Part shown: piece after piece, positions 1,432 to 64,000 of the stretch | How the letters are laid out: the number at the start of each line of letters is the position of its first letter | How positions within the stretch are numbered: the stretch's first letter is position 1 | NCBI GenBank assembly: GCA_030248225.1 | Contig: JASANE010016168.1 | Span: 1-64,000, forward strand | Direction of reading: 5' to 3' | Length of the DNA stretch: 64,000 bases | Source of the DNA: Trileptium ribeirensis | Lineage: Eukaryota > Nematoda > Enoplea > Enoplida > Thoracostomopsidae | Program-made: the position numbers and the translations under genes | The notes under the pieces: model-generated | The model's input: only the letters and a program-made list of their open reading frames with translations | Databases searched by the model: none | What the model was told of the DNA's origin: nothing

Positions 1432-1549
1432 AATTCCAGGACGTTACTCCAAATTTTCCAGGATTTCGGTGTTTTACTTCTACAAGCGCTCCAAATTAGA
1501 GGATTTTCCAGGACACTTTTCAAATTCCAGGATTTTCCAGGGCACAGCC
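1432..1549 (+). repeat. Internal TTCCAGGA-type short repeats
   Basis: Several copies of a TTCCAGGA / GATTTTCCAGG word occur within about 120 bp. The block is mirrored in the right arm around 11640-11770. It is a simple internal repeat of the arm with no sign of coding. Confidence 0.5.
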
Positions 1550-39030: not shown

Positions 39031-39370
39031 TTTGCGTGTTTATGGAAGCCCAAATACTGGGTATTCTTTATGCACAGCAAACCATTGTTGACTCAACTTT
39101 TTTCTGTCCTGACTGTAAACTTGAGTTTAAACTAAAGTTTAGTCAAACTTAACGCATTGTATAGCCATTTCGTTGGGGCTTCAAATGAGAAAACTTTCAA
39201 CAAACTGAGAAAACAACTGTTTATTGCGGTAATACAAAATAAAGGTAAAAACATGTAAGGCAAACTGATAAATTGCAAATTAACATCAAGGCTCGATTTT
39301 GTCTTGCTATAAATCATGTAGCGGACGAGCTAGAATATTCATGCACGAGAAACTTTTATAGATTTCCTAC

Positions 39371-39828
39371 AGCCCAAAATTTTTTACCCACTGCACGAGG
39401 ACTTAACACTGCAATGTTATCCAGATTTCGTGCATCTGTATCACGAAATAGTACCCATGCGCTGGGATTCGGTACCTATAATATTAGATGCTGCGCTTAG
39501 ACAGTTAGGTGGATCGCCATTGCTTTTAAATATCGATTACACAGGTGAAGCTGCGGAAAATTGCTGGATCTTGGTACGGAAAATTCTTTCGAGCATTATC
39601 TCGTTGTCATCTCTAAAATTTCTGTGTGAAAACCACGATACGCTTATCACAGAGGTTACAAACACTCCCTTGGATCCGCCTTTCAAACATGCCATCTTAT
39701 ATCCCATAGGTGTCCATTGGAGGGTTAACGCTCTTACAGATCGCACACTCCTAGTGACTGCTGCATGTTCCCCACGCGCGGACAATTTCGTAAATGTGGC
39801 TAAATTGGACAAAAATTTCGTAAAATAG
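39371..39828 (+). CDS. Unidentified exon-like open frame
   Basis: An open frame entered through an acceptor-like TTTCCTACAG at 39370. It reads HEDLTLQCYPDFVHLYHEIV and then PMRWDSVPIILDAALRQLGG, with good amphipathic helix spacing (helical-repeat-like) and no low complexity, up to a stop at 39826-39828. Another frame just upstream (39273-39370) reads INIKARFCLAINHVADELEY, which could be a preceding exon or the same gene with a frameshift. The part after about 39670 looks less protein-like. I cannot name the family. It could be a host-gene remnant, a gene with exons elsewhere, or an unknown transposon protein. Confidence 0.3.
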
Positions 39829-39889
39829 TTAGCTCAAATTGGCAAAAATTCTGTCCTCCCCTACCCAGAATTCGACCTATCCTGGGTTG

Positions 39890-40180
39890 CCGCTGTATGG
39901 TTTTTCACATCTTCCATCAGGGCACTTTCCAGTTTTGTTGTGGTCTTCCTCTTTTCTTCTTTCCGCTGTTACATTCAAGGCTTTTCTGGAAATGGCTTTT
40001 CTCGGCCTGCGCTTCACGTCCATACCATGCCAACCGGCGAGATCTTCTCATTTCGATGATAGGTTCGACATTCATACTGTTTAGGATTGTCCCGTTCGGA
40101 ATTCTGGTCTCTCCTTGCATCCAACGGAACATTTTCATTTCCACCGTTTGTAGCATGCTTGAGCTAGCAGTCTTAGATGT
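39890..40180 (-). pseudogene. Decayed RTE-type LINE C-terminus (relic 2)
   Basis: The minus strand reads KMFRWMQGETRIPNGTILNS, then RRSRRLAWYGREAQAE and KKKRGRPQQNWKVP. These are the standard closing motifs of RTE-like LINE polyproteins (LRW..G.TR, RLRWYGH, GKRPRGRP..RW). There is no RT core upstream (above 40180). It lies in the opposite orientation to relic 1 and is from a different subfamily. Confidence 0.7.
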
Positions 40181-40299
40181 CTAGCATACGGGGCTGGTTA
40201 TTGTCGAATACACACTGCTATTCAGATTCAATGGAACTCGCCAGGGGGAGGGCGAAGAAGCGCCTTATTTCCACTCGCTTTTCAAGACTCGCGCTTATG

Positions 40300-42200
40300 C
40301 CGTGAATTACTGGGAGAAGATCCGCAAACAATTATATTCATGGCGCGTTGGCATTGATTTTTTATGCCATTGCATCAAGTATGATAATCCAAAGGAAGCG
40401 GTTATGTGCCAATCCCTGGTTCAACCTAACTGTTATTGACTTGTCTGCATCGGATGTTTGTTCTGTTTTTAGTACATGTGTTTGATGACTTATTTGTACA
40501 CTTAGGAGAGTAGATAAAAACGGCTGGTTTTACCCCCCCCACACACACAAATGGGGTGGGTGGGGTGACAGATGGTATATATGTATATATAAACAAGGGC
40601 AAATAAAATCTCTCCTGCGCTATGATTACCGCTACCAAACATATATTATAATAGCAGATATTAGAAATTGAAAAATTGTAGTAGATATGTTTACTCTGGG
40701 GATTTTGGTCACATGTATATATGACATCATTGTGACTATTTATAAATAAGTATATATATATATATGTATATATATGTATATATATATATGTATATATATA
40801 TAATTACGTGATTATATACGATATCTCATCTCCCAAGTGTATCATGGCGTCACCAGGAACTCGTTGTATAAGAGCTTGCGCATGAGTAAAGTAGCTGTAT
40901 CATGATTATAAGGCTAAAATCGTGGCGTCACCAGAAACTCGTAGTATAAGCGCTTGCGCATTAGTAATGTTGCTGTCTCATGATTATAAGGCTAAAAATG
41001 ATTTCATGGTGTCGCTAACATAGTTGGAGATTACAAATGGCTATATATTAGATTAGAAATAGCTTTCTAATATATATATGTATATATATATTCATTTCTC
41101 CATGCACTATATATACAATTATGTTGTCATAGGTCTACATGCAATTACGTTATATATACATATATATAACCCTCACGTTGTGAGGGGTTGGCTGCTTGAT
41201 TGGTTTTGATTTGCGGTGCTTCAATTTGGGGGTTACATATAGCTACATATATTGAAATACAAATCAAACCATAGACACCACATTACAGTACTAACGCAAT
41301 ACATTTGTATTATACTTATATACTTACATTTCTATGGTATCAACGGCAGAATATGGAGAATATGACACACTGTTGTATGATGATTATTGTACATTTGCAA
41401 TATTTTATATAACTATTTACAATTGTTCGTAGTTAATTATTATATACAACAATTATTTACAATTATATTACAATTGTCCGTATTGAGCTAAGCTGATCCT
41501 CCTTATACATTAATCAACATACTCGATTTTGTATCTTCGATGCTAAAATAATATATAGTTAATTAAACTTAAACTTGTATCAATAATTAGTAATAAGTTA
41601 CCAATAAATTAACATCATATTAAAAATAAACTACAAAATTGTTATATATTTAATTATTTATACACATGTAAAAAATAATATTTCAAATTATTTAAACTAT
41701 GAAATTATACATATTTAAAATGTGTATGTACACCCACCTTTTTGAGTTCTTTGCGGAACTCGTAATCCAATTCTTGTTGAGACGAAACAACAAAACCAGT
41801 CTCAACCATATCTCCCTTCAGAACCAAGACGATGTATTTTTTCAGCGTGTTGCGATAACCGCGCACACCAACTGGAACATTAAACTTTCGTCGTGTTTCG
41901 ACAACGACTCACAATAGCGACGCTGTTCTCCATGATGGCTATTGCAACCATTATGGGGTTAAAAACCAACTTTTGAAACAACGGGAAGGTTGGGAGTTAC
42001 CCTCAAGGTAATGGTTTGATAAACCAACCATTACACCGAGTCTAAAGCAGAAAAACTAAAAGCACTATAGTTCATATTAAATAAAAATTATTTTTCTGGT
42101 GCTTTTGGGTTTTAGCTTCCAATGTTTGGCGTCACTTCATTAGTATTTTATAGCATCGAAAAAAAACCAACACAACAAAAAAAAAAAAAAAAAAACAAAA
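40300..42200. other. AT-microsatellite-rich stretch
   Basis: It contains (TA)n/(TATG)n runs at 40748-40803, 41066-41092 and 41152-41168, the duplicated unit at 40842-40998, and a long A-run at 42177-42202. The 41699-41917 ORF has no family signal. Confidence 0.7.
40842..40998 (+). repeat. 78-bp tandem duplication
   Basis: Two units begin TGGCGTCACCAG and end TGATTATAAGGCTAAAA, with a 78-bp period. A partial third start (TGGTGTCGCTAAC) is at about 41007. The units share CTTGCGCAT and AACTCGT words and differ at about 10 positions. Confidence 0.85.
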
Positions 42201-47144: not shown

Positions 47145-48060
47145 ATTTTAGAGTAGAGGGAAAAATCTCGATTTGTCGGCGCCCATCAGCAGTTGTCAAC
47201 GGCTTCCTAGGCATCTTCGCGTGGCTGTCGCGGGTCAGCGGGGATTCGGGCAAAGGTACAAAGCATATGGTTGGATTCAACTAGTCACGGTGAACAAAAC
47301 GAGGGGTCGCATGCGCCGGTTCTGACGCGGGGTATGGCGGCGGGAGTGTTAGAAAGTGGGGTTCGTATTGGTTGCATACTACAATAGGTCACAGAAACAA
47401 GGCGGGTTGGTCTAAAAAGTTGTCCACAGCACACACACATGAATAGATACATGTATATATTTTATATATGATGTGTCCTAACTGCATGGAAAGTGATGGT
47501 CCGGGTTCCCCGATGACAATCCTACCTAGCGTAAGTAGCGATTGTCTCTACGTGTTACAAGCGAAGTTGCGGCGTTGTCCGGAGGGCCTTTGGGCGTCCA
47601 TTTGCAATTCCCAAAGCGTTTTACCAGCCTACTCTGGTTATTCTCCATACCACGATGTCGCAGACGGTGACGGGCCTTCGAACGAGCCCGGCATCCGTCG
47701 TCCCTTATAGTTGCAAGTGCTACCAAAGTGTGATTTCCGTCTATTCTGGCTTGTTGTTTTCCATAACCATTACCTAGTATATTATTATAACCAAGTAAAT
47801 TTAATATTTTTGATTTCAGTCTTAACAAACGTGTTTTCCTGAACGTGCAGCCAGGGGCCTCCTATTCCCGGACGGTCGTAACCGTCAACCCAATAACACA
47901 TGATGCCTATCGGTTGGGGTTTTCGACTGCTTTCCAACTGTCGTCGACGTAAAACTCTATTTTCGGTCATACAGGTCGGTTGGGGCTCATTTCCTCATAA
48001 GTTGGTCTGATTGTAACACTCGTCCCTAACAAATTCATAAATTACAACGATACAAAGTGA
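47145..48060. other. Stretch without recognised genes
   Basis: Only short frames in both strands and no domain or repeat that I can support. Confidence 0.4.
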
Positions 48061-48084
48061 TCCGTTATTCAAAACGATACGATT

Positions 48085-48440
48085 ATACAAACAGCACTTT
48101 TATACAGATGAATCCATTAATACAAATTACACTTTTATACAAAATGCTTCATTAGTATACTCGACACTTTTATACAAAATGTTTCAATAGTGTAAACAAT
48201 ACTTTTATACAAAAAGTTTCAATAAAGTAAACAATATTTTTATACAAAAAGTTTCAATAATGTAAACAATATTTTTATACAAAAAGTTTCAATAATGTAA
48301 ACAATATTTTTATACAAAAAGTTTCAATAATGTAAACAATATTTTTATACAAAAAGTTTCAATAATGTAAACAATATTTTTATACAAAAAGTTTCAATAA
48401 TGTAAACAATATTTTTATACAAAATCTTCCATTATTATAA
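48085..48440 (+). repeat. 35-bp minisatellite
   Basis: About ten units of the pattern TTTTTATACAAAAAGTTTC plus AATAATGTAAACAATA. The middle units (about 48200-48420) are identical. Units to the left are progressively degenerate (AAATGCTTCATTAG, AGATGAATCCATTA), and the last unit changes to AAATCTTCCATTATTA. There are no unique spacers, so it is not a CRISPR array. Confidence 0.95.
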
Positions 48441-48600
48441 GCGAATTATCATGGGCGCTATTTTAAACAAAATGATTGTCTGACACAATGCGACCCATGT
48501 ATATGCAACCTGCCATGCGCCAACGCGTCCCGTTACAATTTTGGGTACGAAATTTCTGGGATGTCCGTGACAGGGCCAAAACGGCCCTGTTACACAAAGA

Positions 48601-48642
48601 TATCAAACTTTGTATTTATAGGTTATCGACTATGTAGATTAC
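48601..48642 (+). repeat. 42-bp perfect direct repeat, copy 1
   Basis: Starts TATCAAACTTTGTATTTATA and ends TATGTAGATTAC. Identical to 48743-48784, 142 bp downstream. The intervening 100 bp is almost pure A/T. Confidence 0.95.
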
Positions 48643-48742
48643 GAATATAATGTTATTTTAAGCATATAGCTAATACTTTAATTACATAGCTAATATTTTA
48701 TATTAATTAATTTAATAACTTTTTAGTTATTTATCGCAAAGT

Positions 48743-48784
48743 TATCAAACTTTGTATTTATAGGTTATCGACTATGTAGATTAC
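48743..48784 (+). repeat. 42-bp perfect direct repeat, copy 2
   Basis: Second copy. It is followed by a TATATATA run and then TGTAACAACCCC at about 48795. Confidence 0.95.
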
Positions 48785-48881
48785 ATATATATATTGTAAC
48801 AACCCCAATCTTACGAAAATTATAAAACGTTAAATGTGCACTAAAATTCGTAGGGAAAGACGGAATGGACGACCTTATACC

Positions 48882-48992
48882 GGTGGAGTGTGGCCTCCAT
48901 GTGAATTGATATATAACTGTGTAATACTTTATTGATCATAAAATAAACCATTGTATTTCATTTGTGTTATACTCGTAAAGCCACACTCCACC
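48882..48992. repeat. 13-bp perfect inverted repeat around AATAAA
   Basis: GGTGGAGTGTGGC (48882-48894) and GCCACACTCCACC (48980-48992) enclose 85 bp that contain AATAAA. The nearby TGTAACAACC at about 48795 is a common start of Ty3-type LTRs, so this may be part of a solo LTR. No matching end was found. Confidence 0.45.
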
Positions 48993-48999
48993 ACCCGAA

Positions 49000-50130
49000 G
49001 GTGCACGGGATGATTTTGGTACCGAAAATAAAAGAAAGGTAATGGTTACGGGTGTCCGGTCGATCTTCGTGAAATGCATTGATTGATAAAATGTTTGTGC
49101 ACTATATTATATTTGTTGTGGAATACGGATGTGCGTTCGGAGAGGCCAGGGACCGACGGATAAGGAATTTTTGGTGACACAAGAAAGAACGGTCACCATG
49201 AGTCTGATCCCAGCGCACACGCCGAGCGGTTACCAGTATTTGTTTGATATCTGTCGTACCTGTAGTTCATGTATATGTTTTTGTGTAGGGTCAGAAATTA
49301 TCAACACGAATTCAGAGTTTCATATATACATTCCGATCATGTTTAGGTAATCAAATTTTCGGTCCTGGAGAACTGAAATTTCGTATACAAAGTTTCTAAG
49401 GCACTATTTTAAGGTCCAACACTACAAGTTCAATTTTGGGTTTTCTACTAAATTTAGGGGAACGGGGTTGACTAAACCTTATAAAGGACTCCCTAGGTCC
49501 CGGCGGGTCAAAAAATTTGGATCCCCTAAATACTTACGGATCCCCGAACAGGCGCTTAAGCCTCCAATTTTCTACGTCTAAAAGGACACCCAACATAACC
49601 AAAAGTCCCCGATTTTTGGAGCCCGGGACACTTATCGGGTCCCACCCTAACTGTTTAATCGAAAACCGGGGCCACCCACCCCCACGGGTCCGCTCATGAT
49701 CCCCTAAACACAAATGGGACTTTAAAATTTTGGGTTTCTTACGCCTAAAAGGCCTCTAACAGGCCTCCTATAAAAGATACCTTAAATTTCAAGGGCATGA
49801 TTCTGGTCCTGCCCCCGGCCGATAGCAGAAATGTGCCGATATCCCTATGAGCAAACGGCGCCCTGAGCGCCGTTATATCTTTCTCCTAAATTTTTGCCGC
49901 ACCGACCAGCGGGCGGTTTTGTTTTTCTGGCAACTTTCGGCCACTGCCCAGCTTACATTATTGTTGGCGGCGTCGTTTCTTTGATAGCTGCGATGAGACG
50001 TTTGTATATGTTGCCGCTTGCCGATGTGTTTGCCATTTGCGATACATTTGTTCAGTTCTCTTGTTGTGTGCCCACCTCGCTTACGACTGTCTGGTTTAGA
50101 TTTTAAACATTTTGAAATTTGTGTATGCTA
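49000..50130. other. Stretch without recognised genes
   Basis: Decayed, GC-richer sequence with short frames only. 49840-49890 contains CGGCGCCC..GAGCGCCG, a short GC hairpin. Confidence 0.4.
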
Positions 50131-50154
50131 GAGGTTTGAGGGTTTGTAGGTTAC

Positions 50155-50190
50155 CGAGTATAAAAGAACGGGCCTGATCAGTAATGTGGG
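50155..50190 (+). promoter_or_regulatory. TATA box and initiator-like pair
   Basis: GTATAAAAG is followed about 22 bases later by TGATCAGTAATG, which fits an LTR-type TATA plus TCAGT initiator. No coding region of a matching element follows within reach, so this is likely an LTR relic. Confidence 0.35.
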
Positions 50191-50282
50191 ACCAGTCGAG
50201 TTGTCAGGCTTAGAAATTATTGGTTGGGTTTTTAGCGGTTGTCGCCAGCTTTTAATTTTGATTTCTTTTCTTTTTTCTTTGC

Positions 50283-50445
50283 CCGGGTGGGGTCTTCGAC
50301 ATGCAGACGTGTGGAAGATACCCGCCCGAGGCTTTTCACGAGTTTTGAATCTTTTTGCTTAAGTCTAGGACCAGGGGCAGCCCTTGCGGGTGCTGGGGTG
50401 TCTGTCGGATGCCCCTAGCTCCCGTAAGCGCCGCACCCGCGCTGC
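50283..50445 (+). repeat. Direct repeat downstream of the TATA relic, copy 1
   Basis: GGGTGGGGTCTTCGACATGC and the later words GGGGCAGCCCTTGCGGGTGC and CTCCCGTAAGCGC recur at 50688-50857 at roughly 75-80% identity, 405 bp apart. Confidence 0.85.
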
Positions 50446-50687
50446 AGAGATTACAGTGAATTTTGGGGCGCAATTATAATCAAAAAGGGGACACCTCCCT
50501 GCTCGACTGGTTCCCCACCCGCTGGGTTGTGTTCATCGTGGACACCCAGTGGGTGTATTGTTTAGTAGTGCTTTGTTTGGTCTCAAGTTTGGCGTGGAAA
50601 ATCCTTTTTCAGAACTTTTGATGACGCGACTTCGGATTCGGAATAAATCCTGCGTGACAAAATTTCGGGGGGAGGGGTTACGTATAG

Positions 50688-50857
50688 CTCGGGTGGACTC
50701 TTCGACCTGCAGACGCGTGGAAGAGATCCGCCCTAGACATTTCGCAGATTCTTCGAATTTTTCGCTTAAGCCTAGGATCAGGGGCAGCTCTTGCGGGTGC
50801 TGGGTTGTTCGTCGGATGCCTCGCGCTCCCGTAAGTGCTGCGCCCGCGCTTCTACGA
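50688..50857 (+). repeat. Direct repeat downstream of the TATA relic, copy 2
   Basis: Second copy (GGGTGGACTCTTCGACCTGC, GGGGCAGCTCTTGCGGGTGC). The long open frame over it (50549-51082) has no domain and overlaps an open frame on the other strand. Confidence 0.85.
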
Positions 50858-51849
50858 TTCGAACAGGACAATTCAAAGGAAAATTTAGGTTGGCACCACG
50901 AACGGTGGCAAATTTCTAGGAGCAACGCTGTAGGCTTAGACATTAATGACAAATTTTGGGGTTGGGGTTCCGCGTTTCGAGAAAGAGCCCGATTGGAGCT
51001 CGCCAGACCTCATTTCGTTATCCAAAGGAAGCTCAAAAGGGGAAGTCTAACTTCGGCCCTTCTGAATTACTCGCTCAAGTAATTGGTGTGCTTTGGCCCA
51101 CATTTGATGTAAAAGTGGTCATTGTTATGTACCCTCCAGGGGGTGACATTGTCGTTTTGTGAAAGTATACTTATGTTTTTATTTTTATCGAAAAGGGAAA
51201 ACCAAGGAATAAACAATTTTGCGTGTGAATTTAGTAGGCAAAATAGACGGACTCGACTCAGGCCCTCTGTCGCAAAAAGAAGTGCACGATCCCACTAAGG
51301 CGTTTAATGTTATTTGATTAAGGCTCATTGCCCGCCTCCCGCAAGCTGCCCAGTGATGCTCGCTCCCACCATGCCGCCCACCTGCTGCCCCATTCTTGCT
51401 TCCCACCTAAGTGTTTTTCGCGCCTGTACTATAGTTAAATTCCGGCCATTTCCATACCGAGTACCGCGGCACAATTGTAGTCCTCTTAGCTCATCTGCAG
51501 CGCTTGCCCTCACTTCACTCGTCCCGCATCCCCGCCCGCCCCGGCATTAACTAGAATTGGTACAGGTCTCTAAATTTCTTAAAGCAATTGCTCATCCAGT
51601 TTACAGTGCTTCCCCTATAAGGTGGCACGACTAGGCTAAGCGAGTTTCGTCCCTAAATCAAACTAGGATAATACAACTGCACCTCCGCGTATAAGGGGCC
51701 CAAGGGTTATGGGATAATTTCCTGGCTCACTAGATCACCTCGAAATTGGGCTCTACCGTTAGGGAATTTTCGATTTTGGCATAAGGCATAAGATTTAATC
51801 ATAAAAATAGAGGGAATGACGGGTCAGCCTTATCGCGTGTGAGCAGGCG

Positions 51850-52060
51850 TAGGGGATGACCCTCCCTCAGGGGGACCTCCATACCTCTAGACACGTGGGC
51901 CATTACAGGGGCTAGGCCGAACACCCTGGTAAACCCGTCTGCAGCCTGCTAAGCTAAGCGGTTCCTTTCGGTCTGACCAGGGTCCACCGGGGAATCGTGT
52001 AAGCCGGGGTTGTCCGGGCACCACGGTGAAAATTGAGAGTGGTGCAGCTGGGATCCCTTA
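51850..52060 (-). repeat. 5S-like dispersed module, copy D
   Basis: The reverse complement contains GGTCAGACCG, AGCTTAGCAGGCTGC, CACGTGTCTAG and GGAGGTCCCCC in the same order as copy C (42205-42540). Confidence 0.55.
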
Positions 52061-52429
52061 GGACCAGAACCGGTCCTAGCTAGTGCATAAAGTGGGGGCT
52101 ATGCCGTGAGGCGAGTTAATAAATTGGGGATGAGCTAGTCCAAAATTAATAGGTGCCGGACCTCTCGCACGCGCAAAATTCGCAGTCTCTTTAGGACTTT
52201 GTTATTTACAGTACATTTCAATTACCATTATGTGCCTGGTTTATATGGATTGTTTCTGAAAGGGCCAGCTAGGCTGAAGATAGGTAATCCGAAACGGTGG
52301 TTGTTGCGTATTGGCGTGTCTCGGTTTTGGAATACATGTTCATTATTTCAGAATTGTTGCATAGGACTTCGCAAGTTATTGACATTGACTTATATCAACT
52401 GTTTATGTAGATATCTGACATTCGGATTA

Positions 52430-53420
52430 AATTGACAATCATCATCGACCGATTTAAATTATATCGACGTCCGCGGCGGTACTTGTCGTAAACGGTGACA
52501 ATAACGGTAGAGACTTTATCGGCACCCTTGTATCATCATACTTGAATACGGCGTACCCTTATTTGCTAAGCATTCGGTTTGTCCTGAACTCTATCGTATC
52601 GGAAATTCGAAACCGGCTACCGACTCAGTGACCGCCAGTGCCGAGCTGCCGATCAGATTGGGTATCGGTAGTACGCAACCGCGAACTACGAACCAACCGC
52701 CCTGGAAAGCGAATATCGCCGGATCATTGAAAACAGTGAACAATCGTGCGATAATGGTCAGTATGTATATGTATTTTTGACTGTATATATAAAGACACGA
52801 AGTACCTTACTATATTTTATTAAGTGGCCTGTCAGTTCAATATTACAATAACTGGTCGCGTATGTTAAAGGTCAAGTTTAACCGTAATCGATGTTTGTTT
52901 TGTGGTAATGTGCACGTACCTCTAGAGTTAACTTAGTCCCTTTATTGCCCGTGAACTACAAATTTTTTTGAATACTTATTGGGTGCCCTTGAATTAATTT
53001 GACAAATACCCTGTGAATTTAGAGAAAGTGTGATCAAAAGGCACAAATCGCCGTTAGCTTAAATCCAAGCTCTAGTCTAACTGAACGTACCGATTTAATT
53101 AATTTTAGTACACCGTCTGTAAGGCGGTTTAACAAACTGTTCCCAGTATTAATTGGATCTGTGAGGAGTGAATAGGCCACATTGTATAGGTGTGCTTACG
53201 AGTGACAGCGTTCATCAAGCGAAACGAAATTTTCACACAAGCAGACACATACCTAAGGAATAAGTATACGAGGATTCTAGTAAACTGAAATTTTGCTCAA
53301 CAGTAGAGGATTCCGCGGTAAAGTAAACACATATAACAAATTATATATTATATCATCCGTACCCACGTCAGACTGGGACCACGAACGCCACACAAACTGA
53401 AACAAATAGGGATAAATAAC
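52430..53420 (+). promoter_or_regulatory. Presumed 5' LTR and leader of the Ty3/Gypsy-like element
   Basis: This kilobase lies directly upstream of gag. TATATATAAAG at about 52784-52793 followed by CCTGTCAGTTC (about 52830) resembles an LTR core promoter. I could not define TG..CA ends, a primer-binding site or a second LTR, which would be beyond the window. Confidence 0.35.
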
Positions 53421-53435
53421 TGATTCGGAATCAAA

Positions 53436-54170
53436 ATGTCGTTACCAGCGAGCGCAAGTAGAACGCCACTACGCAGCGCAGCGGGAACAACAAATGTAGG
53501 AAGTGGCACTGCCACTACGGCTGGTAGTACAAATGGACCCAGCCCTATCGCCTCGGCAGACCCTCTAGTTGCAATTCTGCAGCAGTTGACGCAACGAACA
53601 ACGACGGCTCCTATCATTCAAGTACGGGATATCCCACCATTTTCAGGAGCCGACGGACAGGACTTTGAAGCCTGGTTGGCTACTTACGACAATTTGACTG
53701 ACGCCAACGGGTGGATCCTGGACCAGAAATTGATTTGCTTTCCAACTGTTCTGAAGGGGGAAGCCCTCAAAATATACGAAAGCTTCCCCGACTGCCAAAA
53801 GCAAACTTATGAAGCCCTTTGCTATAATATGGGCTTCATGTACTCATCATCGCAACGGGACGAGGACGCTTTAATAACGCTACGCATGCGAGTGCAAGGG
53901 GAACGTGAATCGGTTGCACTGTACGGACTTGATTTGCAAAATCTCGTAGACAAAGCGTTCCCGGAGGTCGAGGGTGAACAACGCGACGCCCTAGTACAAA
54001 AATTCCTCCGACAAGGACTACGACGGGAACTAAAATCTGGAGTAATAGGAAAGACATACCCGTCGTTCAAACACATGATGGACAAGCTCAAATATAAGGA
54101 GGAATATATATATCCTAGCTTCTCAGAAAGAGGTGATAGGGATACCGGTTCGCAAAAGCAGCCAGTCTAA
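53436..54170 (+). CDS. gag: Ty3/Gypsy-type Gag (capsid), N-terminal part
   Basis: The ATG at 53436 opens a 244-codon frame. After an Ala/Thr/Gly-rich N-terminus it reads as a retrotransposon capsid: an IPPFSGADGQDFEAWL entry motif, helical stretches with LKGEALKIYESF, an RMRVQGERESVALYGLDLQNL segment and FLRQGLRRELKSGV. This order is typical of retrotransposon Gag. The capsid packages element RNA in the cytoplasm. The frame stops at 54168 although Gag-like sequence continues in another phase from about 54190, so a frameshift has split the gene. Confidence 0.85.
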   Translation: MSLPASASRTPLRSAAGTTNVGSGTATTAGSTNGPSPIASADPLVAILQQLTQRTTTAPIIQVRDIPPFSGADGQDFEAWLATYDNLTDANGWILDQKLICFPTVLKGEALKIYESFPDCQKQTYEALCYNMGFMYSSSQRDEDALITLRMRVQGERESVALYGLDLQNLVDKAFPEVEGEQRDALVQKFLRQGLRRELKSGVIGKTYPSFKHMMDKLKYKEEYIYPSFSERGDRDTGSQKQPV

Positions 54171-54189
54171 AACGGTAAACTGTATGTCG

Positions 54190-55299
54190 CAAAGGGGTGA
54201 GAATACCTAACTAGTAGATCAAATCCGTGAAGCCTTAGATGAGAATAAGCGCACTGCAACCAGTAGCGATGCTACGATCGCTCGGCTTATTGATCTACTA
54301 GATAAACGCACTGAACAACACCTACTAAACGCGATGATGCCGAATAGTGTGACCCCGGCAGCCGGCGCTAACGCTATTCCAGCAGCACCTATAGGTAACC
54401 AGTGCTTCCGGTGCGGTTTTATATGACATTTTGCACGGGAATGCCCGTACTACCGAACTGACGTGTACGACCCACTCCTAAACGAATACCCTCGCTTGGC
54501 AACGCGCACAGCCCCGGGCTATATGCCGAATGCACCCGCGCCTGTTATCGGGTATCCTCCGCAGTACAGCAACCGCCCCCGATACCGAGTAATTGAACAC
54601 CGAGGAGTAGGCCGATCCTCACGACGCGATGAATGGAATCCACAGCGAGGACCTGTAGGGTAAGGGCAGCAAGGATATTACCGCCCTGAGCCTGCTCCGA
54701 ATACATACGGAAACTATGGCCGAACTGAGTACTACAACCGATCGCGTGGCCGCGATACTAACGGACCTAGCAATTGGCATAACAACTATAATATCACACC
54801 TAGCTCGCGTTACACAGGCCCACCACAACAATTGTCCGCCGAAGCAGCACCATTCCGCCCGCGTATACCTAGCGACGGCTGGAACAACGCTAATCAAGTA
54901 GTGGCAGCCCCGCGAGCAAGGCCTTCGCAGGCGCCCACGAATCAACATGAACCATCAGGTCGCCGCAACGCAGGAGTTATGGCAGTAACTCGAGCAGCTG
55001 ACCCCGAGCTCGCTCACCGTTTAGACGTTATGCGACACAAGATGTCAACCTTAGAGGAACGTGCAGGAGCTGGTTTGAATGCCCGATCGGCACAAATTAA
55101 CGCAATGATAACTAGAGACAGTGCAAAACACATATACGATGACCCAAACCTTGATGCGGAACATGAAGATCAAGAAGAATTTGAACCCGAACCAACACCA
55201 TATCAATTGAACCTATTGCAAACGAACAGAACACCGGCACGAATATTTGCCGCAAGCGACCATGTCGTGGGGCGACAATGGGGAATACAACGCAATTGA
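54190..55299 (+). pseudogene. gag: Gag continuation: nucleocapsid and basic C-terminus, broken
   Basis: In the frame one step from the capsid ORF. A Cys-x2-Cys-x4-His-x4-Cys zinc knuckle lies at 54403-54444, but a TGA (54424-54426) occupies one position inside it. A second stop is at 54661-54663. Beyond it come a Tyr/Arg/Gly/Asn-rich RNA-binding-like segment and an acidic tail (DAEHEDQEEFEPEP), ending at a TGA by 55299. The zinc knuckle marks this as nucleocapsid. The defects show that this copy cannot make an intact Gag. Confidence 0.8.
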
Positions 55300-55357
55300 C
55301 AGCTAACTAACTAGCACAGCAGAAGTAGGGCGTAGTAAGGAACAAATCAACTATATA

Positions 55358-58231
55358 TTGGAACGGCGCTCGACTTTACTGTCTCCGACCCCTGGCGCGC
55401 AGGGTGTGGCTCGTAACTCTGTGAGTAATGGTTGGCCAACCGACTTATGTATATATCCCAAAATGGAGTCAGCGCGAAGTGATGGAAACCGAGATACCGA
55501 GAGGAGTGAGAGGGGAGGAGGGGTTGAGGAACTAGAGGAGCCGAAGGAACCTAATGTACCTGATATGCCGAGTGAGAAATATGGGAGATGGCCGTTTGGA
55601 GTTCGGGGGCCGATTAATAGGACATCCGTGTCTAGCAATGACCCAAACGCTGGAACGTGTAACCCATCTCAGGCGGCTGCATATCGGAGGAAACCTAATG
55701 GACTTATGGAGGGAGAACCTAATAAACTTAATGGAATGGAACCTAGAGAGACGCCGTTCGGACTTCGGGGGCCGATTAATATGGGTCGCGTGTCAGGCGA
55801 TGGCTCTAACGCCGGCACGGCACAACCTGGTGAACCCGCGAATTTTCACAGTCTTATTCAAAATAGTATGTGTGTAGCGGAACCAGAAGAACCTGCGGAG
55901 GAACTAGTGAGCCTAATGGAACCTAATGGACTAGCGGATACTGAGAACCTAATGGAACCTAGCGGATGGAATGGAATACTGAGTAACCTAGCGGAAGGGA
56001 ACCGAGAACCAAAGGAACTAAATGAACTTAACCTAGTGGATGCATCCGATACTAAACTGGCTACCACCAATTTAGGGCGGCCGCGTGAGGCCCCTGTAGC
56101 GTTTCAACCGACCGGGGAAGACCGTAAAGAACACTGGTCAGGTGCGATGTAGACCTTCGGGAAACGGGTCAGCCCGATTGTCCTAACTCCGTTCATAATT
56201 CGAAAGCGTATGTGTACCCTAAAATCTTTAGAGGCCGGGGAAGACCGTAGAGGACATTGGCTAGGAGAAGAGAGGCGTTGGGAAGCGAGCCGTCCCGATG
56301 GCCCGAGCTCCGTTCAAAATTGTAATTTATATGTAGGATCAAACTCGTGTAGAGCCCGATCCCTAAATGTAGAGGCCGTGGCATCTGACCAGGTCGGAAA
56401 CTACGGGTTGAGTCAGTCGTGGCATAGCCAATCCAACCGGCAGGTGAATATGTGTGCGTTCGAATCTGAGTCGGCCGGAACCGATGCCTCCAGCGTGTGT
56501 GTAGAACCGGGAAGAGAAGCTGTGCCGCTCGTGTGTGAAAGGGTTTCCGAGCCACAGTGAGACAAAACTGAGCCGAGTGCCGAAGTAAATTTTGGTGTCG
56601 ATGATCATAGTAGTCGAGCAATAATGAGGCTAATCTTGAGTGGTAATGATGAGGAAAGGGAACTAATTGAACCAATGGAGTTAAGTACCGAACCAAGGGA
56701 ACCAGTGACCACTAGCGTAGGCTCGAATGTCGTGATTGTGACGCCCATCGTACTAGGAACGAGTGAAATCGACCAAGTAACCAACCGAATTGCAGAACAC
56801 CCAGCAACACAACCAGCGATAGTGACCTGTTACCTAAGTAGGGACGTAGTGAACGAAATTGGATATGAAAGGACCGGATTGCCGGTAAACCTGATGGACG
56901 TAATTGAACAAACTCTGGCTACACCTCGATCATTGCGAATTAGACCGATTTGGGACCCTATTGACGCGAACCCCACCACAGAACTTACCAGTGATCACAT
57001 GGCAACACCCGAACGGGCCACGCACCAGTTAAACATGCAAACTAACAAACAACACAGCCTTGACTCAGCACTGAGAGTGATATTTTCGAAGGGTCCTACT
57101 GAAGAAAAGGTAGAGCCCCTAATTCTACAGGGTTTGCCCCACGAGGAAAGATTAATATTACGGGGTCCAGAGTCGGAGTTCGCACCCACAATCATAACCC
57201 TGGGACCTGGGGAGGTACCCCGCTATCCATTCCTACCCCCTCGACTACGCCCACGAAGAAAACAGGTACTCGCAAGGGCCTTGATCTATCGAAGAGTCAT
57301 AGCTGTGCCGGAGCGGATTTGCCATGCCCACCAGTTGCTCAGGGCCCGAGCGGCTGGAACGGCCCCACTGGAGCGACGGCGGGACGCCGCCGTTGTGTCC
57401 GGGCTGTTAGGGTTCATATCTCCGTTCTTGCACACTATGGCGGGGATACATGTTAGCAGCAGTATGGTGAGGCACCTCGAGGTATTACTAGAACTAGTTG
57501 CCCGGGTGTTAAACTCAATGAGTATTACCGAGGCCGTTACTGAAATATACCGCTCTCAGATTCCCGTCCTTCAGACATGCCAGGCGTGCGAGGGACAACA
57601 CAACACCAATTTTATGCCCACCAGCGGTTGCACTTTTGTTACATATCACGGCGAGTGGGACTATACGGGGAATTTGTCTGCCGAATATGGCATCGTCCGG
57701 CGCAGTGGAACTATTGCTATCCAACCAAGTCGTACGTAAGGGTTGCACACAGCTTCTGAGCAGACCACATACCGGGAAGCTAACTTAGAATGGTTAGAAA
57801 CTGTGACCATTGCGCCGTACTTGCTGGACTACCTCGTTACTGAATATGGTGAATCCGGTCCCATTGCACCGGTGCTGTCAATTGACCACATTGTATATGC
57901 AGTAATGGCGAATGCTATTTTTAAGCAAGTAGGTAGTGCGCAGAAACGCGAAGAACTGTTATATCTGAGACTATTATGGCTGCATCAGCCCCCTCAAAAC
58001 GTTTGGCAAGCTGATCCGAACGACGACATGGACGCAGGCTCGATTGTCAACCCGGACGCGGACATAACATTCATCGACGAGGAGGAGCTCGAGAGCGAGT
58101 TGAGTACATCGCGTAGTGATATGAGCGAGGACGAGTTTAACATGCCCGCTATCGCGACGCTAGACTAGGACGACGTGGTTTCCGAACTCGACTCACTCCC
58201 GGACCATGACGACCTCGAAGACGAACCATAG
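55358..58231 (+). pseudogene. Long charged region between gag and the Env-like ORF
   Basis: One frame runs through this region and on into the Env-like part, interrupted by stops at 56150, 56558, 57737, 58166 and 58229. Composition is Glu/Pro/Asn/Leu-rich, then mixed. It contains a repeated motif (FGVRGPIN.. at about 55597 and FGLRGPIN.. at about 55756) and a 123-bp tandem repeat (about 56110-56198 and 56233-56320). A short Cys-containing block (CQACEGQH) lies near 57575, and the end is strongly acidic. No family recognised. Position suggests a Gag-side extension or a long cytosolic leader of the Env-like protein. Confidence 0.55.
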
Positions 58232-58285
58232 GTTGATGCAACTGAGGGTGGCCGAGCAATACTGACCAGGTCAAGTCCAGCAATA

Positions 58286-60150
58286 TTGACCTTCTCAAAC
58301 AGACTAAGGCGACGATATGCAGCAGCTGCAGAATTGTGGAGCCGAGGGGTTAGATTCACGGGAATACTGCTTTTCTTGCTAGTCGTCCAACAACTGGGTC
58401 AAACCCAGGCAATCGCCACGTCATTTTCTGACCAGGTAGCACGCTTAGGAGCCATGGTTAACCAACAAGTGGGGACCCTAATCGAACCACAGGGTCTGGT
58501 AACAACAGCCTCGCGATGCACTTTTCTACCGATCGTTTTGCGATTGTCCCTAGATGGGTTACAACCGAGCAGGCAAGCAACCGGTATGGCGTGGTGTGTT
58601 TACACCCCCAGAGGTAAACCATGCCTGAGGGACTGCTGTCCCAACCCGAATTGTACTACCATGCCGGACTTACAACGTAAAATTCAAGAGTTGGAGCAAG
58701 AATTAAAGAGCACATGTCAAGGCGTATTAGACACGAGCTATTACATGGCTCCAATGCGCGGATATTGCGAAGCGAACGTTCATTTTTGTGAAGAGCCTAG
58801 GGCTCGGAAGAAAAGATTTCTCGCTGCCCTCCGGAGCTGCTGGCGTAGTTACAGGATTCTTAGGAGTAGGGGCAGCCTTTACAAATGCGGTGCATCTAAT
58901 ACTGATCTAAACAAACAGGTGGTAGCACTGTCTAAGGAAACGCGAAACACTTACAGTATGGCCCAGGGCAACTCCCGAGCGATCCTGAAATTAACACGCG
59001 CTCACGAGGAGCATTACTCCTTCTTGCACCACGAGATGCAGGAAGTGGTTGGCATGATAGAACAGGTTAGGTGCCAGGAACAACGCTACGTGACAGAGGT
59101 ACATCGCGAATTAGTAAACCACATGTTTCGCACCAGCCTGCGTTCTTCGGTCGACGCCTTCATGGAAGCTATGATGAGCGGGCAACTATTGCCCGAGGTG
59201 GTGGATGCCGCGACACTAATGCGTCTATTCGAAAAGGATCCGAGAATATGACAAACCATACTAATGCGCGAGCCGGCGCTAGCCTACCAATTTGGGCAAA
59301 TTTAGCCAGTGCACATTGACCTGGGCACGTTCAAGTTTGCATTCATCTTAAGCGTACCGCTAGTTATGTCGGACGACGTCCGGCCTTATTTCCGGATATA
59401 CAACGTTGGTTGGAACGTACCGGAGCGTGGTGCGCACATGAGACTACCTCTGCCGGAATACGCCACGCGAGTTGAACGGGCACGGTATGAGGTGCTGAAC
59501 TTGCACGCATGCCACACGCGACATGGCATTGCTTTTTGCGGGGTTCACGCTTTGGCCACAGACCATTCTTCACGCTGTTTGGATTGGATCATCATGGGTG
59601 AAGACTCTCCAGATGACACACGCCGCATATGCAGGAACAGCGCATTGGTCGGACCAATGGTCAACCATAGCGACGTGTACACCACCGCGCAAGGAGTACT
59701 AATTCGAACCGCCGAGCCCAAAGCGTGGTCTCCAAGCAAAAGCACCTCAGCCATGTTACTCGCGGAGAAACCATTAGGATACCAGGAAATGGGGTGCTAT
59801 GGCTGTCACACAGCAATTACACCCAACTAGTGGTCGGACCGCTAATGCTCGCTAGTACATTAGACGCTCAGGAGGTCATCGTTCACATTGGACCTAACAT
59901 CACCATACATGACTTCCCAGATATTCCTCTTAGACCTATCACCTGGAGCTCATTAGAACATGCCAAGGCTACTAACTTACAGGTCCAACAGATAGCTGAT
60001 GAGCAGTTGAAAAGGTTATCGACTTTCCGTACATTACGACAACGGGAGTTGCTCCCTACCTTTGGATGCTCGTTGTGCTGGTAGTTGTAGGTATAGGGGC
60101 CATAATTTACTTCAGGAAGAAGGCAGGCTTCTGCCCTAAATGCATAAGGG
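58286..60150 (+). pseudogene. env: Env-like membrane glycoprotein, frameshifted
   Basis: Order seen: a basic stretch (RLRRR), a hydrophobic signal or anchor segment (about 58355-58400), a Cys-containing ectodomain, a dibasic furin-type site (RARKKR, about 58798-58815), a Gly/Ala-rich hydrophobic stretch, a helical heptad-like region (about 58918-59130), a Cys-rich part (59309-59830), NxT sites (about 59815 and 59899), and a membrane segment (60066-60113) followed by basic residues. These are class I-type envelope features. The hydrophobic stretch after the cleavage site (about 58832-58900) is in a different frame from both flanks, and there are further breaks at 59249, about 59303 and near 59730-60066. 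The protein is not producible from this copy. The family is uncertain. Confidence 0.65.
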
Positions 60151-61322
60151 GACGCATCCAGCTGTGGTGGCAGCAGCGACCATGTAGTCATACAGACCGA
60201 AAGCGACTCGAATTGAACATCAAAACGGGGAATGAGCATGGTACCCCACGCGCAGTTCGGCCTACGGTTTCAGCCCCAGCTGCTTCCACGGGACACCTGG
60301 AAATGCGAACGGTGAGCCCTCATCGGTCGGCTCGACTAAATAACCCCAATGAGGACGAGGACGTTGTTCTGGTGGAACCTAGGGAACTGTTTGCAGTGTC
60401 CGAGCGTGCGCAACGTAGGGGACATCGTACGGTATCTTACCACCGGCAAGTCAATGCAATGCACCACATAGACGCACCGTTGCTCATCAACGCTTTCATC
60501 TACCGGACACCAGTCCTCACGTTGATCGATACAGGCGCGGACGTCTCTATCGTATCACAACATCTGGTAAGTAAGCTAGGCCTCCAGCCCCGTGCAGGCG
60601 ACTCAACGCGGATAGTATCGGCCACCAAACAAGAATCAGCATTGGACGGTAGCATAAGTGTACCCTTGTCAATTGGACCTATTAAGGTGCAGACGAAATT
60701 CTTTGTCACCCAAACCGCTCCGTACCATTGCATTTTAGGAACAAATTTCTTGTCGCAACTGCCAAAGCGTATCATAAATTTTCGCGAGCACTGTTTAGAA
60801 ATAGGCATAGACGAGGAAGAAGACAAAATACCCTTCGCAGGCTTGGAATGCTATGACCCACCCTTAATAGCAGTGATGTGCAGGAAGCTCACCACCATCG
60901 AACCAAATACAGAAACGTTTATCAACGCTATCCCCGAAATTGTTGATACAAGCGTAGGACCCGCTCTATTCGGCCCCGCTCCCGAAATGATGGATATCGC
61001 GAAGGCACATGCGTTGGTGCTCAGGAGTCAGCGAACTATACCAATCGCGGTTATCAATATTGGTAACACACCGGTCACCATATACTCAGGACAAACTATT
61101 GGGCACATTGAAGTCATGAGCAATCCAGTAATACAATTCCTTAAGGATACGAATCAAAATTTGATACAATACGAGGAACATAAGGTGGCTAAACAGCTAA
61201 ACCATATCACTACCCATCCCGGGAGGATTATCGAACACATCGAGGCAGGCAAGCGGTCCATCGACCACGAACGGGCTCAAACAGTATTGAGTAAAATAGA
61301 TTTTGATAGGACACTATTATAG
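60066..61322 (+). pseudogene. pol: Membrane anchor fused in frame to retroviral-type protease (start of Pol)
   Basis: The frame opens with the hydrophobic anchor of the Env-like protein, a Cys-x2-Cys tail and a linker rich in Arg, Ser and Pro. It continues without a stop into an aspartic protease: the active-site LIDTGADVSIVS (about 60523) and CILGTNFLSQL (about 60728), the flap-side and C-terminal signatures of retropepsins. Retropepsin cleaves Gag and Pol after assembly. After the protease there is a further 180-residue segment. The frame ends with TAG at 61320, yet the RT region follows in the same frame, so this is probably a nonsense mutation. Confidence 0.8.
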
Positions 61323-62831
61323 CCCTTCGAATTAAAACAACTGAAAACCGCAATCGCTGAAAATGCAGACGTATTCAGCACCCATGATTTTGACCTAGGA
61401 CGATACACCGAACACCGACACCGCATAGAAACAGGGGATGCAAAACCAATCAAACAAGCACCATGTCGACTGGCGCATTCATTACGCGAACCGCTTAGGG
61501 AAGAACTGAATAGCATGCTAGATGCAGGCCTCATAGCTCCATCGACTTCACCTTGGGGACATCCGAAAGTGTATGTGACCAAGAGCGATGGCTCTCTCCG
61601 ACTATGTTTCGACTTTCGGAAGGTCAACACAGTAGCAGAGCAGGATGCGTATCCACTGCCACGCATAGACGACATACTAGGGTGCCTCAGGAATACGAAA
61701 TTAATGTCAAGGTTTGACCTAAACAAGGGGTTTTGGCAGTTAGAGTTAGATCCCGAGACCAACGATAAAACATCTTTCGTGACGGTACACGGGCAGTACG
61801 AGTATAACGTCCAACCGTTCGGTCTAAATTCATTCCCCGGAGCCTTTCAACGATGCATGTCAATGATTTTGAAGGGCCTTGAGTGGGAGAAATGTTTAAT
61901 ATACATCGATGACATACTAGTATTCTCACCATCATTCGAGGCCCATCTGGCAGACTTGATTCGGGTTTTCGATCGCTTCCGGAAAGCGAATTTGAAACTG
62001 AAACCCTCAAAGTGTCACTTCGGCCGAGGCAGCCTCAAATACTTGGGACACATAATTAGTACCGAATGCGTCAAACCAGACCCAGAGAAAGCAATAGCCA
62101 TTGAAGAATTTAAACGTTCGGAGACGTTGAAACAACTCCAAAGTTTCTTAGGGCTTGTAGGGTACTACCATAAATTCATTCAAAATTACTCGGATATCTG
62201 CGAACCATTGAATGAATTGAAACGCAAGGATACAGAATTCAAATGGACCCCCAGGTGTGAGGAGGCTTTTAAGAAGCTGAAACAAGCATTACTAGATGAA
62301 CCGGTCCTAATCCACCCTGATTTCACGCAGCCGTTTATCTTGCAAACGGACGCTTCCGGAGATGCTATGGGTGCAGTGTTATCCCAGAAAACTAAACAAG
62401 GAATTAAACCCATTGCATACGCCAGCAAGGCCCTCCATGATTATCAACGCAGGTACCCCGCAATAGAAACTGAAGCTCTCGCCATTAGGTGGGCCGCATT
62501 ACATTTCAAGCATTACTTAGTAGGGCACAAATTTCACGTTGAGACCGACCACAAACCACTTAAAACCCTATTTGATAACCCACCCAGAAATTCGCGCTTA
62601 TCTCAATGGCGAAGCGAGCTATTACTCGAGTTCGGGGGATTCGAAATATTATACAGGCCAGGCAGGGAAAATGGCAACGCAGATGCTCTATCACGCGATC
62701 CTAGGTACGACCCGTCTATAGTTGAGGAGCTAGGAGATACTTACGAAGTCCTTATGATGGGCCGAGGACGACCCACCGCACCTCGCCCGCGAACAACCTG
62801 CGCAGCATGGGATCAATCGCATCTGCCGTAA
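61323..62831 (+). CDS. pol: Pol: reverse transcriptase and RNase H, Ty3/Gypsy-type
   Basis: Same frame as the protease ORF. RT landmarks in order are GLIAPSTSPWGHP, LRLCFDFRKVN, YPLPRIDDIL, SRFDLNKGFWQL, the catalytic YIDDILVFS (about 61900) and KYLGHIIS. The connecting region VGYYHKFIQNYSDI and RNase H follow: LQTDASGDAMGAVL (Asp), ETEALAIRW (Glu), VETDHKPL (Asp) and GRENGNADALSR (last Asp). The RT copies element RNA into DNA in virus-like particles. From its RT motifs the element is Ty3/Gypsy-type (Metaviridae). No stop interrupts this part. It ends at TAA 62829, although the sequence continues in frame. Confidence 0.93.
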   Translation, partial: PFELKQLKTAIAENADVFSTHDFDLGRYTEHRHRIETGDAKPIKQAPCRLAHSLREPLREELNSMLDAGLIAPSTSPWGHPKVYVTKSDGSLRLCFDFRKVNTVAEQDAYPLPRIDDILGCLRNTKLMSRFDLNKGFWQLELDPETNDKTSFVTVHGQYEYNVQPFGLNSFPGAFQRCMSMILKGLEWEKCLIYIDDILVFSPSFEAHLADLIRVFDRFRKANLKLKPSKCHFGRGSLKYLGHIISTECVKPDPEKAIAIEEFKRSETLKQLQSFLGLVGYYHKFIQNYSDICEPLNELKRKDTEFKWTPRCEEAFKKLKQALLDEPVLIHPDFTQPFILQTDASGDAMGAVLSQKTKQGIKPIAYASKALHDYQRRYPAIETEALAIRWAALHFKHYLVGHKFHVETDHKPLKTLFDNPPRNSRLSQWRSELLLEFGGFEILYRPGRENGNADALSRDPRYDPSIVEELGDTYEVLMMGRGRPTAPRPRTTCAAWDQSHLP

Positions 62832-63140
62832 ACCGTACGCACAGTCGCACCGCTTGCAACAGGCGCACCAATCCCTATAACAGGGAGCCCAATAGCTCCC
62901 CCGGGGCAACCCAATCCTGAAGCAATCCCATCGCAACTAATTTCCGACACGCAAGTAACTACAGTACCCCCAGCAACGCTGACCCAGCAGGCAGCTACGC
63001 TAAGTGTTATCCCAATTATGATGAGACGGGGAGAAACCCCAGTAATGTCGGTTCGTACCACACTATCTCGGGTCCTGAAGGCAGACCTCAGGCTCGAGGA
63101 CCTAAAAGACCGTTTCGCACCGAATCAGAGACGATGGGCC
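62832..63140 (+). pseudogene. pol: Pro/Thr-rich linker between RNase H and integrase
   Basis: In the RT frame after one TAA, the sequence encodes a Pro/Ala/Thr/Ile-rich linker of about 100 codons, then RRW and a stop at about 63138. Such long linkers are unusual between RNase H and integrase. The next open piece (63134-63337) is in another frame. Confidence 0.5.
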
Positions 63141-64000
63141 TAAGGGCAACCACACTACCGACCGAACAGGAGTTTGATAGGCTCATGAAATTAATGATGC
63201 ACTATGAAACCGAGATACTACCAACCGTCCGAATTGAGGACGCACAGGACACTCACGAAAACATATATCTGCCGTTCTTTTCAGATCTCCCAGATTTCAA
63301 CTTAGTACGGCTCTTTACCGTATATACAACGAAATGACCCGGAGCTGGGTCCAATTTGGTGGTACCTGTACAACAAAACACGGCCCAAGGCCGAGTCAGG
63401 GGCATTAAAAATAGAAATGCGATCTCACTACTTTGAGCTAGCCGCAGACACCAAAATATTATATATGCATCCACTACGACCCGGGGACATAAATTACAAG
63501 TTATGCGTCCCGATCACATTGGTACAGCAAATACTCAAACACGAACACGATACTTTATATGGAGGACATCCTGGCCGCGACCGGCTTATAGCTAAATTAA
63601 AACAGTTCTACTATTGGAAGGGTATGTCCGAACACGTAAACAATGGATCAGGCGATGCACCCTTTGCCAGTCCGCGAAGGACCCCATTTCTAACCACCGG
63701 ATTGGGTAGGGTTCCGTTGGCAAATCAACCAATGTACCGTGTATTTGTAGACATACTGGGTATTCAGGTTAGGTCGCAGGCAGGCAACCGTTATGTCATT
63801 GCATTTATCGACCAATTTATCAAATTTGCAATAGCGGTGCCCATAAGGCACCAGGATGCTCACACAGCTGCCCATGTATTCCTATATGACGTAGTCAATA
63901 GGTACGGAGCTCCCAGGGAGCTGTATTCTGACAGAGGAGGCGCCTTCACAGCGCACATGTTCGAAGAGCTGTGCCAGGAAATGCAAATATTTCGGCACAT
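63134..64000 (+). pseudogene. pol: Pol: integrase, frameshifted and cut by the window end
   Basis: The zinc-binding part shows HDTLYGGHPGRDRL and FYYWKGMS (about 63546-63630). The Cys-x2-Cys half of the HHCC finger is in a different frame just downstream (about 63656-63670), so a frameshift lies near 63645. The rve core has the first catalytic Asp in YRVFVDILG (about 63740) and the second in YSDRGGAF (about 63926). The Glu would lie past 64000. Integrase inserts the element DNA into the host genome. The 3' LTR is outside the window. Confidence 0.8.

What the first reader, a model, noticed from the sequence alone, without database searches (positions are those of the whole stretch)
53436..64000. 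Retroelement with gag - Env-like - pol order and a membrane anchor in frame with protease
The Ty3/Gypsy-type copy has an Env-like glycoprotein between gag and the protease, and its transmembrane segment (60066-60113) is in the same open frame as the retropepsin domain (about 60523). Retroviruses and env-bearing Metaviridae, as I know them, place env after pol. No LTR or other boundary is visible between gag and pol to explain it as two nested elements.
Basis: partly seen in the sequence, partly recalled or inferred. Interest (0 to 1): 0.85.

Follow-up and report, generated by a model that had tools for sequence, protein, structure and literature searches.

The report
Retroelement with membrane anchor before protease
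A decayed virus-like jumping gene in an unidentified, apparently animal genome seems to carry an envelope-like membrane protein between its capsid gene and its enzymes, in one frame with the enzymes rather than placed after them as in known relatives; only this one broken copy could be examined, so the unusual order still has to be seen in other copies.

Summary
53436-64000 is a decayed Ty3/Gypsy-type element running off the window: gag 53436-55299, about 4.7 kb of other coding sequence, then PR-RT-RH-IN. A coding model trained on pol alone calls 53548-64000 coding without a gap; no LTR-like pair brackets the middle; lesion density is like that of gag plus pol (9 of 1565 versus 8 of 1944 codons). 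Nesting is very unlikely. The element's only strong hydrophobic segment (60057-60113) shares an open frame with the retropepsin (60504-60758). Upstream lie a weak signal-like segment, an RKKR site and a coiled-coil-like stretch: an Env-like layout. Searches with pieces of the middle region found no homologue, so "Env" rests on layout. Gag ends at stops in all three frames; the next frame has its own ATG at 55463. Best reading: ORF2 encodes X-Env-like-Pol, with Pol the cytoplasmic tail of a membrane protein. ICTV places Metaviridae Env downstream of integrase, so this would be a new variant. The decisive test, other copies in this genome, could not be run (genome search did not complete). Recurrence, LTRs, splicing and host are unknown.

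The parts
53436..55299 (+). gag-like ORF (decayed: one frame change near 54113, three internal stops); ends at a cluster of stops in all three frames, 55297-55314
   Evidence: coding frames 0 then 1; stops; no Pfam gag match
54403..54444 (+). CX2CX4HX4C zinc knuckle of a nucleocapsid, with a stop codon inside it
   Evidence: read in frame 1; motif recognised by eye
55463..58168 (+). region X: start of the second ORF (first frame-2 ATG 55463), with internal repeats, function unknown; its border with the Env-like part is arbitrary
   Evidence: coding frame 2; ATG; repeats; no Pfam match at a curated cut-off
58361..58417 (+). weak signal-peptide-like hydrophobic segment, with an arginine-rich stretch (NRLRRRY, 58298-58318) upstream
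   Evidence: KD 1.44; RLRR; net charge of the 15 residues before it only +1
58805..58816 (+). RKKR, furin-type cleavage motif, followed by FLAALRSCWR
   Evidence: one of three RX[KR]R matches in frame 2 of 55307-59722
59024..59107 (+). heptad-periodic, coiled-coil-like stretch
   Evidence: 3 of 300 shuffles reach it; a stretch in X at 57440 scores nearly as well, 7 of 300
58232..60002 (+). Env-like ectodomain coding region, frame 2 then frame 1 (from about 59724), decayed
60057..60113 (+). membrane anchor YLWMLVVLVVVGIGAIIYF followed by RKKAGFCPKCIRGRI
60114..60503 (+). open linker joining the anchor to the protease; holds in-frame ATGs at 60303 and 60459; codon signal weak
60504..60758 (+). 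retropepsin (DTG at 60528-60536)
   Evidence: PF13975 E 2.5e-11
61323..62828 (+). reverse transcriptase and RNase H
   Evidence: PF00078 1.1e-27, PF17919 1.2e-37, PF17917 2.3e-34; best PDB matches 4ol8 (2.3e-80) and Ty3-G Gag-Pol 7q5b (5.6e-80)
63507..64000 (+). integrase zinc-binding domain and core, cut by the window end
   Evidence: PF17921 6.6e-13, PF00665 3.8e-12

Best explanation
This is one decayed Ty3/Gypsy-type element whose coding order is gag, then a second ORF (from the ATG at 55463) encoding a region X of about 900 residues, an Env-like membrane protein, and PR-RT-RH-IN. Shown for this copy: the order, the continuity of coding, and the open frame through the anchor into the protease. 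Inferred mechanism: an internal signal-like segment puts the Env-like part in the ER lumen; the anchor at 60057-60113 stops transfer, with its strongly basic flank on the cytoplasmic side; Pol is then made as the cytoplasmic tail of that membrane protein. Pol would reach budding particles through the membrane anchor rather than through a Gag-Pol fusion, and the protease next to the anchor would free it. How ORF2 is translated (spliced RNA or reinitiation) is not known.
For: Pol-trained coding model: 53548-64000 coding without a gap (60501-63998 is largely its training set; 53548-60500 is the independent part); 0 of 20 shuffles of 55307-60300 and not the reverse strand of 53436-64000. On the whole 64 kb, both strands, its other calls are the MED13 exon stretch (with a shadow call on the opposite strand) and 39338-40424. 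No bracketing repeat. Similar lesion density, p 0.63, small counts. TM-protease frame open. TM the only one of KD 1.8 or more in the element's forward frames, +6 in the 15 residues after it. Gag ends at three-frame stops and the next ORF has its own ATG. RT clearly Ty3-like.
Against: One decayed copy only. Two frame changes (near 59724 and 60003) lie in the Env-like part just before the anchor. No homologue for the pieces of the middle region that were searched: 58232-59248, 56561-57736, the other pieces by Pfam alone; none for the anchor-protease piece in the protein collection. Signal-like segment weak (KD 1.44; +1 before it). Hydrophobic peaks of 2.6 or more occur 8 times in the six frames of the window, so such a string alone is not rare. 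Codon signal in the linker is weak: in the window starting at 60120 frame 1 scored 0.02 against 0.01 for frame 0, though with 4 stops. ATGs at 60303 and 60459 would let Pol start by itself. No strict-consensus splice donor lies in 53001-55420, which does not favour a simple spliced ORF2 message.
Confidence: 0.45

Rival explanations
1. Same gene order, but Env-like protein and Pol are separate products: the stop that ended env was lost or shifted in this copy, and Pol starts at its own ATG (60303 or 60459) on a spliced or reinitiated message, as foamy-virus Pol has its own message (recalled).
For: In-frame ATGs before the protease; weak codon signal in the linker; the copy is visibly decayed, so one lost stop is cheap.
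Against: Linker open in frame with the protease over 135 codons, 10 of 2000 by chance; no frame change called there.
Confidence: 0.25
2. A private rearrangement: template switching or deletion joined the middle of one element to the pol of another in this copy only.
For: No second copy could be looked at (26 unanswered requests, listed in the full report); no relative of the gag, X and env pieces tried was found in viral contigs, though such scans find close relatives only.
Against: The joint is in frame and leaves no noncoding relic; no pol relic lies between gag and env (no Pfam match at a curated cut-off for the pieces of 55307-60081); similar decay.
Confidence: 0.15
3. The middle region is not an envelope: it is another membrane protein or a captured host gene, without fusion function.
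For: No match to an envelope family in the pieces scanned; sequons not in excess, 4 seen, shuffle mean 2.2, 328 of 2000 reach 4; useless fold model.
Against: Weak signal-like segment, RKKR, coiled-coil-like stretch and anchor with basic tail stand in the order of a class I envelope (the comparison is from recall).
Confidence: 0.13
4. Two nested elements or an assembly error.
For: None found; the element's own LTRs could not be mapped because its 3' end lies outside the window.
Against: No LTR-like repeat or noncoding stretch between gag and protease.
Confidence: 0.02

Closest known systems
Errantivirus / env-bearing Metaviridae (Gypsy)
   Same: Ty3-type PR-RT-RH-IN, gag, and a membrane protein with a C-terminal anchor (furin-type site in Gypsy Env: recalled)
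   Different: there env is encoded downstream of integrase (ICTV profile, whole text); here the Env-like part lies before the protease and in its frame
Cer1 of C. elegans (Ty3/Gypsy)
   Same: Ty3-type element with an extra, poorly conserved protein
Drosophila MDG1-group elements with sORF2
   Same: a retrotransposon-encoded transmembrane protein other than a classical Env
   Different: a short protein of its own (abstract only); I infer that it is not joined to Pol
Foamy viruses
   Same: Pol would not be made as Gag-Pol
   Different: all recalled: foamy Pol has its own spliced RNA, is not fused to Env, and the order is gag-pol-env
HERV-K Pol-Env fusions
   Same: Pol and Env sequence in one frame
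   Different: order reversed; known to me from recall, here seen only as a phrase count in a search listing

Membership tests
Metaviridae (Ty3/Gypsy) | pol order PR-RT-RH-IN | tested here: met
Metaviridae (Ty3/Gypsy) | RT closest to Ty3-type RT | tested here: met
   of 153 PDB sequences matched (60 shown), the best are 4ol8 (named reverse transcriptase/RNase H, Ty3 by recall; 2.3e-80) and 7q5b (named Ty3-G Gag-Pol; 5.6e-80), well ahead of the rest. No tree against all Ortervirales families was made
Metaviridae (Ty3/Gypsy) | flanking LTRs, PBS, PPT | tested here: inconclusive
   3' end outside the window and own-genome search unanswered; a generic tRNA-derived PBS pattern gave no match in 50000-53439
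Metaviridae (Ty3/Gypsy) | gag with capsid fold and zinc knuckle | tested here: inconclusive
   knuckle present with an internal stop; no Pfam gag match; fold model pLDDT 36.8
env-bearing Metaviridae (Errantivirus) | env downstream of integrase | tested here: inconclusive
   an Env-like region lies before PR; the window ends inside integrase, so a second env after it cannot be excluded
baculovirus-F / errantivirus Env family | sequence match to a profile of that family | tested here: not met
   no such profile matched the pieces at E up to 10 (that Pfam holds Baculo_F and Gypsy Env models is recalled, and HMMER's filters drop most weak matches)

The most novel reading that the evidence does not exclude
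A retroelement lineage in which Pol is delivered as the cytoplasmic tail of the envelope protein (Env-Pol polyprotein), replacing Gag-Pol fusion as the way of packaging reverse transcriptase.
Probability: 0.3. Interest if true: 0.87.

Novelty: new variant of a known kind. Interest (0 to 1): 0.6.

Why it matters
LTR retroelements commonly tie Pol to Gag, which sets its dose and packaging (recalled). An element that ties Pol to a membrane protein would show a different solution to packaging and place a protease directly beside a membrane anchor, with an envelope-like gene between gag and pol instead of after pol.

Tried and rejected
Nested elements: no LTR-like pair or noncoding gap. Relics of a second pol in the middle: no Pfam match at a curated cut-off, only sub-threshold ones such as DUF243 and DUF1540. 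Viral contigs with RT, anchor-protease, env piece, P0001, an RT alignment, P0002, gag and 56561-57736: no related locus in 8 of 8 scans. Genome contigs (bacteria and archaea) with RT and P0002: none in 2 of 2. Two single-sequence structure models, both with mean pLDDT under 38, not searched further. 2A-like peptide: none in 53400-64000; the one slippery heptamer in 54900-55330 (55143) would shift to frame 0, not to ORF2's frame 2. PBS by a tRNA consensus typed from recall: none. Only one GTRAGT donor-like site in 53001-58600, at 55421. One search ended in an error after printing its table; its table was used.

Literature: 'env upstream of pol' with retrotransposon and 'gag-env-pol order' with retrotransposon and env gave 0 papers. 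Other phrase searches listed none whose title or visible abstract start describes this order; nearly all of those papers were seen as listings only, and the library is open-licence papers only. Read further: Troyka (abstract and part 1 of 5) and PwRn1 (two passages), neither about this order.

Full report
What was checked. 53436-64000 carries the remains of a Ty3/Gypsy-type retroelement. Pfam finds a retropepsin (PF13975, 2.5e-11; 60504-60758), reverse transcriptase (PF00078, 1.1e-27), RNase H (PF17919, 1.2e-37) and integrase (PF17921 and PF00665) in that order. Of 153 PDB sequences matching the RT (60 shown) the best are 4ol8 (2.3e-80; Ty3 RT by recall) and 7q5b (named Ty3-G Gag-Pol, 5.6e-80). 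Gag starts at the ATG at 53436 and has a CX2CX4HX4C knuckle at 54403-54444 (read by eye, with a stop inside). No gag or capsid profile matches.

Order and continuity. A four-state model (three frames and noncoding) trained only on pol calls the stretch from 53548 to 64000 coding without any gap: frame 0, frame 1 (54113-55270), frame 2 (55271-59723), frame 1 (59724-60002), frame 0 (60003-63120), then two short changes. Its training stretches lie within 60501-63998, so 53548-60500 is the independent part. The stretch 55307-60300 shuffled 20 times gave no coding call in 20 of 20, and the reverse strand of 53436-64000 gave none. Run on all 64 kb and both strands, a composition-scaled version calls only this element, the MED13 exon stretch (26436-32898, with a shadow on the opposite strand at 30623-31254) and 39338-40424. 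An LTR or long untranslated relic between gag and protease should have appeared as a noncoding gap. Repeats found within 53000-64000 are short ones inside 55.5-56.4 kb, none bracketing the middle, and the upstream flank 48001-53436 has no match in the element. Stops plus frame changes: 9 in 1565 codons of the middle region (7 stops, 2 frame changes), 8 in 1944 of gag plus pol (5 stops, 3 frame changes), Fisher p 0.63 (my counts, leaving out the stop cluster at 55297-55314, which I read as gag's natural end). The numbers are small, but one insertion that decayed as a whole fits best.

Anchor and protease. Frame 0 has no stop from 60003 to 61319. The segment 60057-60113 scores KD 2.53, the only one of at least 1.8 in any forward frame of 53400-64000; 4 of 2000 codon shuffles of 60003-60500 reach it. 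Against over-reading: six-frame peaks of 2.6 or more occur 8 times in the window. The linker 60114-60520 stayed open in 10 of 2000 first-order simulations, but its codon signal is weak: in the 240-base window starting at 60120 frame 1 scored 0.02 (with 4 stops) and frame 0 0.01 (with none). Net charge of the 15 residues after the anchor is +6, before it 0; by the positive-inside rule (recalled) Pol would be cytoplasmic. The first hydrophobic segment (58361-58417, KD 1.44) is weak, with +1 in the 15 residues before it and NRLRRRY further upstream; RKKR lies at 58805-58816, one of three RX[KR]R matches in frame 2; a heptad-like stretch lies at 59024-59107 (3 of 300 shuffles; a stretch in X scores nearly as well, 7 of 300). 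This is the layout of a class I envelope (recalled), but no homology supports it: for 58232-59248 only two sub-threshold, unrelated Pfam matches at E up to 10, two sub-threshold NCBIfam ones, a coiled-coil-level PDB match (E 0.013), none among 3350 candidate proteins, and a useless model (pLDDT 37.7). Sequons: 4 in 563 residues, shuffle mean 2.2, 328 of 2000 shuffles reach 4, so no sign of a heavily glycosylated protein.

Expression. Gag ends at stops in all three frames (55297-55314), followed by a frame-2 ATG at 55463 in the context CCCAAAATGG. So the protein before the anchor seems to begin in a second ORF, not as a Gag fusion. In-frame ATGs at 60303 and 60459 leave room for separate translation of Pol; that is the main rival. 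The only strict-consensus donor in 53001-58600 is at 55421, so a splice from the leader has no visible support.

Relatives. The RT search scored 7991 candidates, 2991 at E up to 1e-3, best 120 listed. P0001 (68% over 87%) and P0002 (68% over 58%), on JGI contigs of 4643 and 3378 bp, group with the window's RT (100/99), and P0003 joins them (100/98), in a tree of 24 rows: the window and 23 of the 120 listed, chosen by me; P0003 is a long branch and P0002 fills under half of the columns, so their exact places are unsure. P0001 starts at residue 31 and P0002 at residue 179 of the RT piece, so neither can test the order. P0002 runs 168 residues past its GPY motif without a hydrophobic segment (maximum KD 0.7), so in that ORF no membrane protein follows integrase. 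None of the 120 matched the gag, X, env or linker pieces at E up to 0.01; this says little, because only 18 of 120 show a protease motif in their first 500 residues and none of those reaches more than 79 residues upstream of it. Scans of viral contigs (8 of 8) and genome contigs (2 of 2) gave no related locus.

What could not be done. The own-genome search was unanswered 26 of 26 times. Recurrence in other copies, LTRs, target-site duplication and what follows integrase are therefore unknown. The host has a MED13 gene in the window; that it is an animal is my inference from the named RT hits (spiders, Trichinella, Manduca, Pinctada, Holothuria among others), and it is otherwise not identified.

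Comparison. The ICTV Metaviridae profile (whole text) states that Env, where present, is encoded downstream of the integrase; the Belpaoviridae profile (whole text) describes an organisation like that of Metaviridae. Cer1's extra ORF lies after pol (passages). I found no paper describing env before protease in the searches listed under Tried and rejected, which cover only open-licence papers and exact phrases. Verdict (my estimates): gene order real for this copy 0.8; Env identity 0.6; Env-Pol precursor 0.45, and with packaging of Pol by that anchor 0.3.

Noticed in passing
1-5419 and 7797-13172: A 5.4 kb inverted repeat, 95% identical, with about 2.4 kb between the arms; its left arm begins at the window start and may be cut by it.
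   Followed up: no
50281-50443 and 50687-50850: Two copies of about 164 bp, 82% alike, about 407 bp apart, downstream of a TATAAAAG stretch near 50160; perhaps part of another LTR-like element upstream of this one.
   Followed up: no
26236-33195: MED13 gene with one open stretch of 2319 codons (Med13_C and MID_MedPIWI matches), a host gene in the window.
   Followed up: partly
39338-40424: Coding signal in two frames; no Pfam match at E up to 0.001 for the ORF 39334-39825; unidentified gene or element.
   Followed up: no
17083-18189: ORF with RNase H and a sub-threshold zf-RVT match, perhaps a relic of a non-LTR retrotransposon.
   Followed up: no
48133-48424: 35-bp tandem repeat, 8.3 copies, 95% matches.
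   Followed up: no
55526-56358: Region X holds diverged duplications at DNA level (55547-55657/55715-55819 and 56112-56237/56235-56358).
   Followed up: partly
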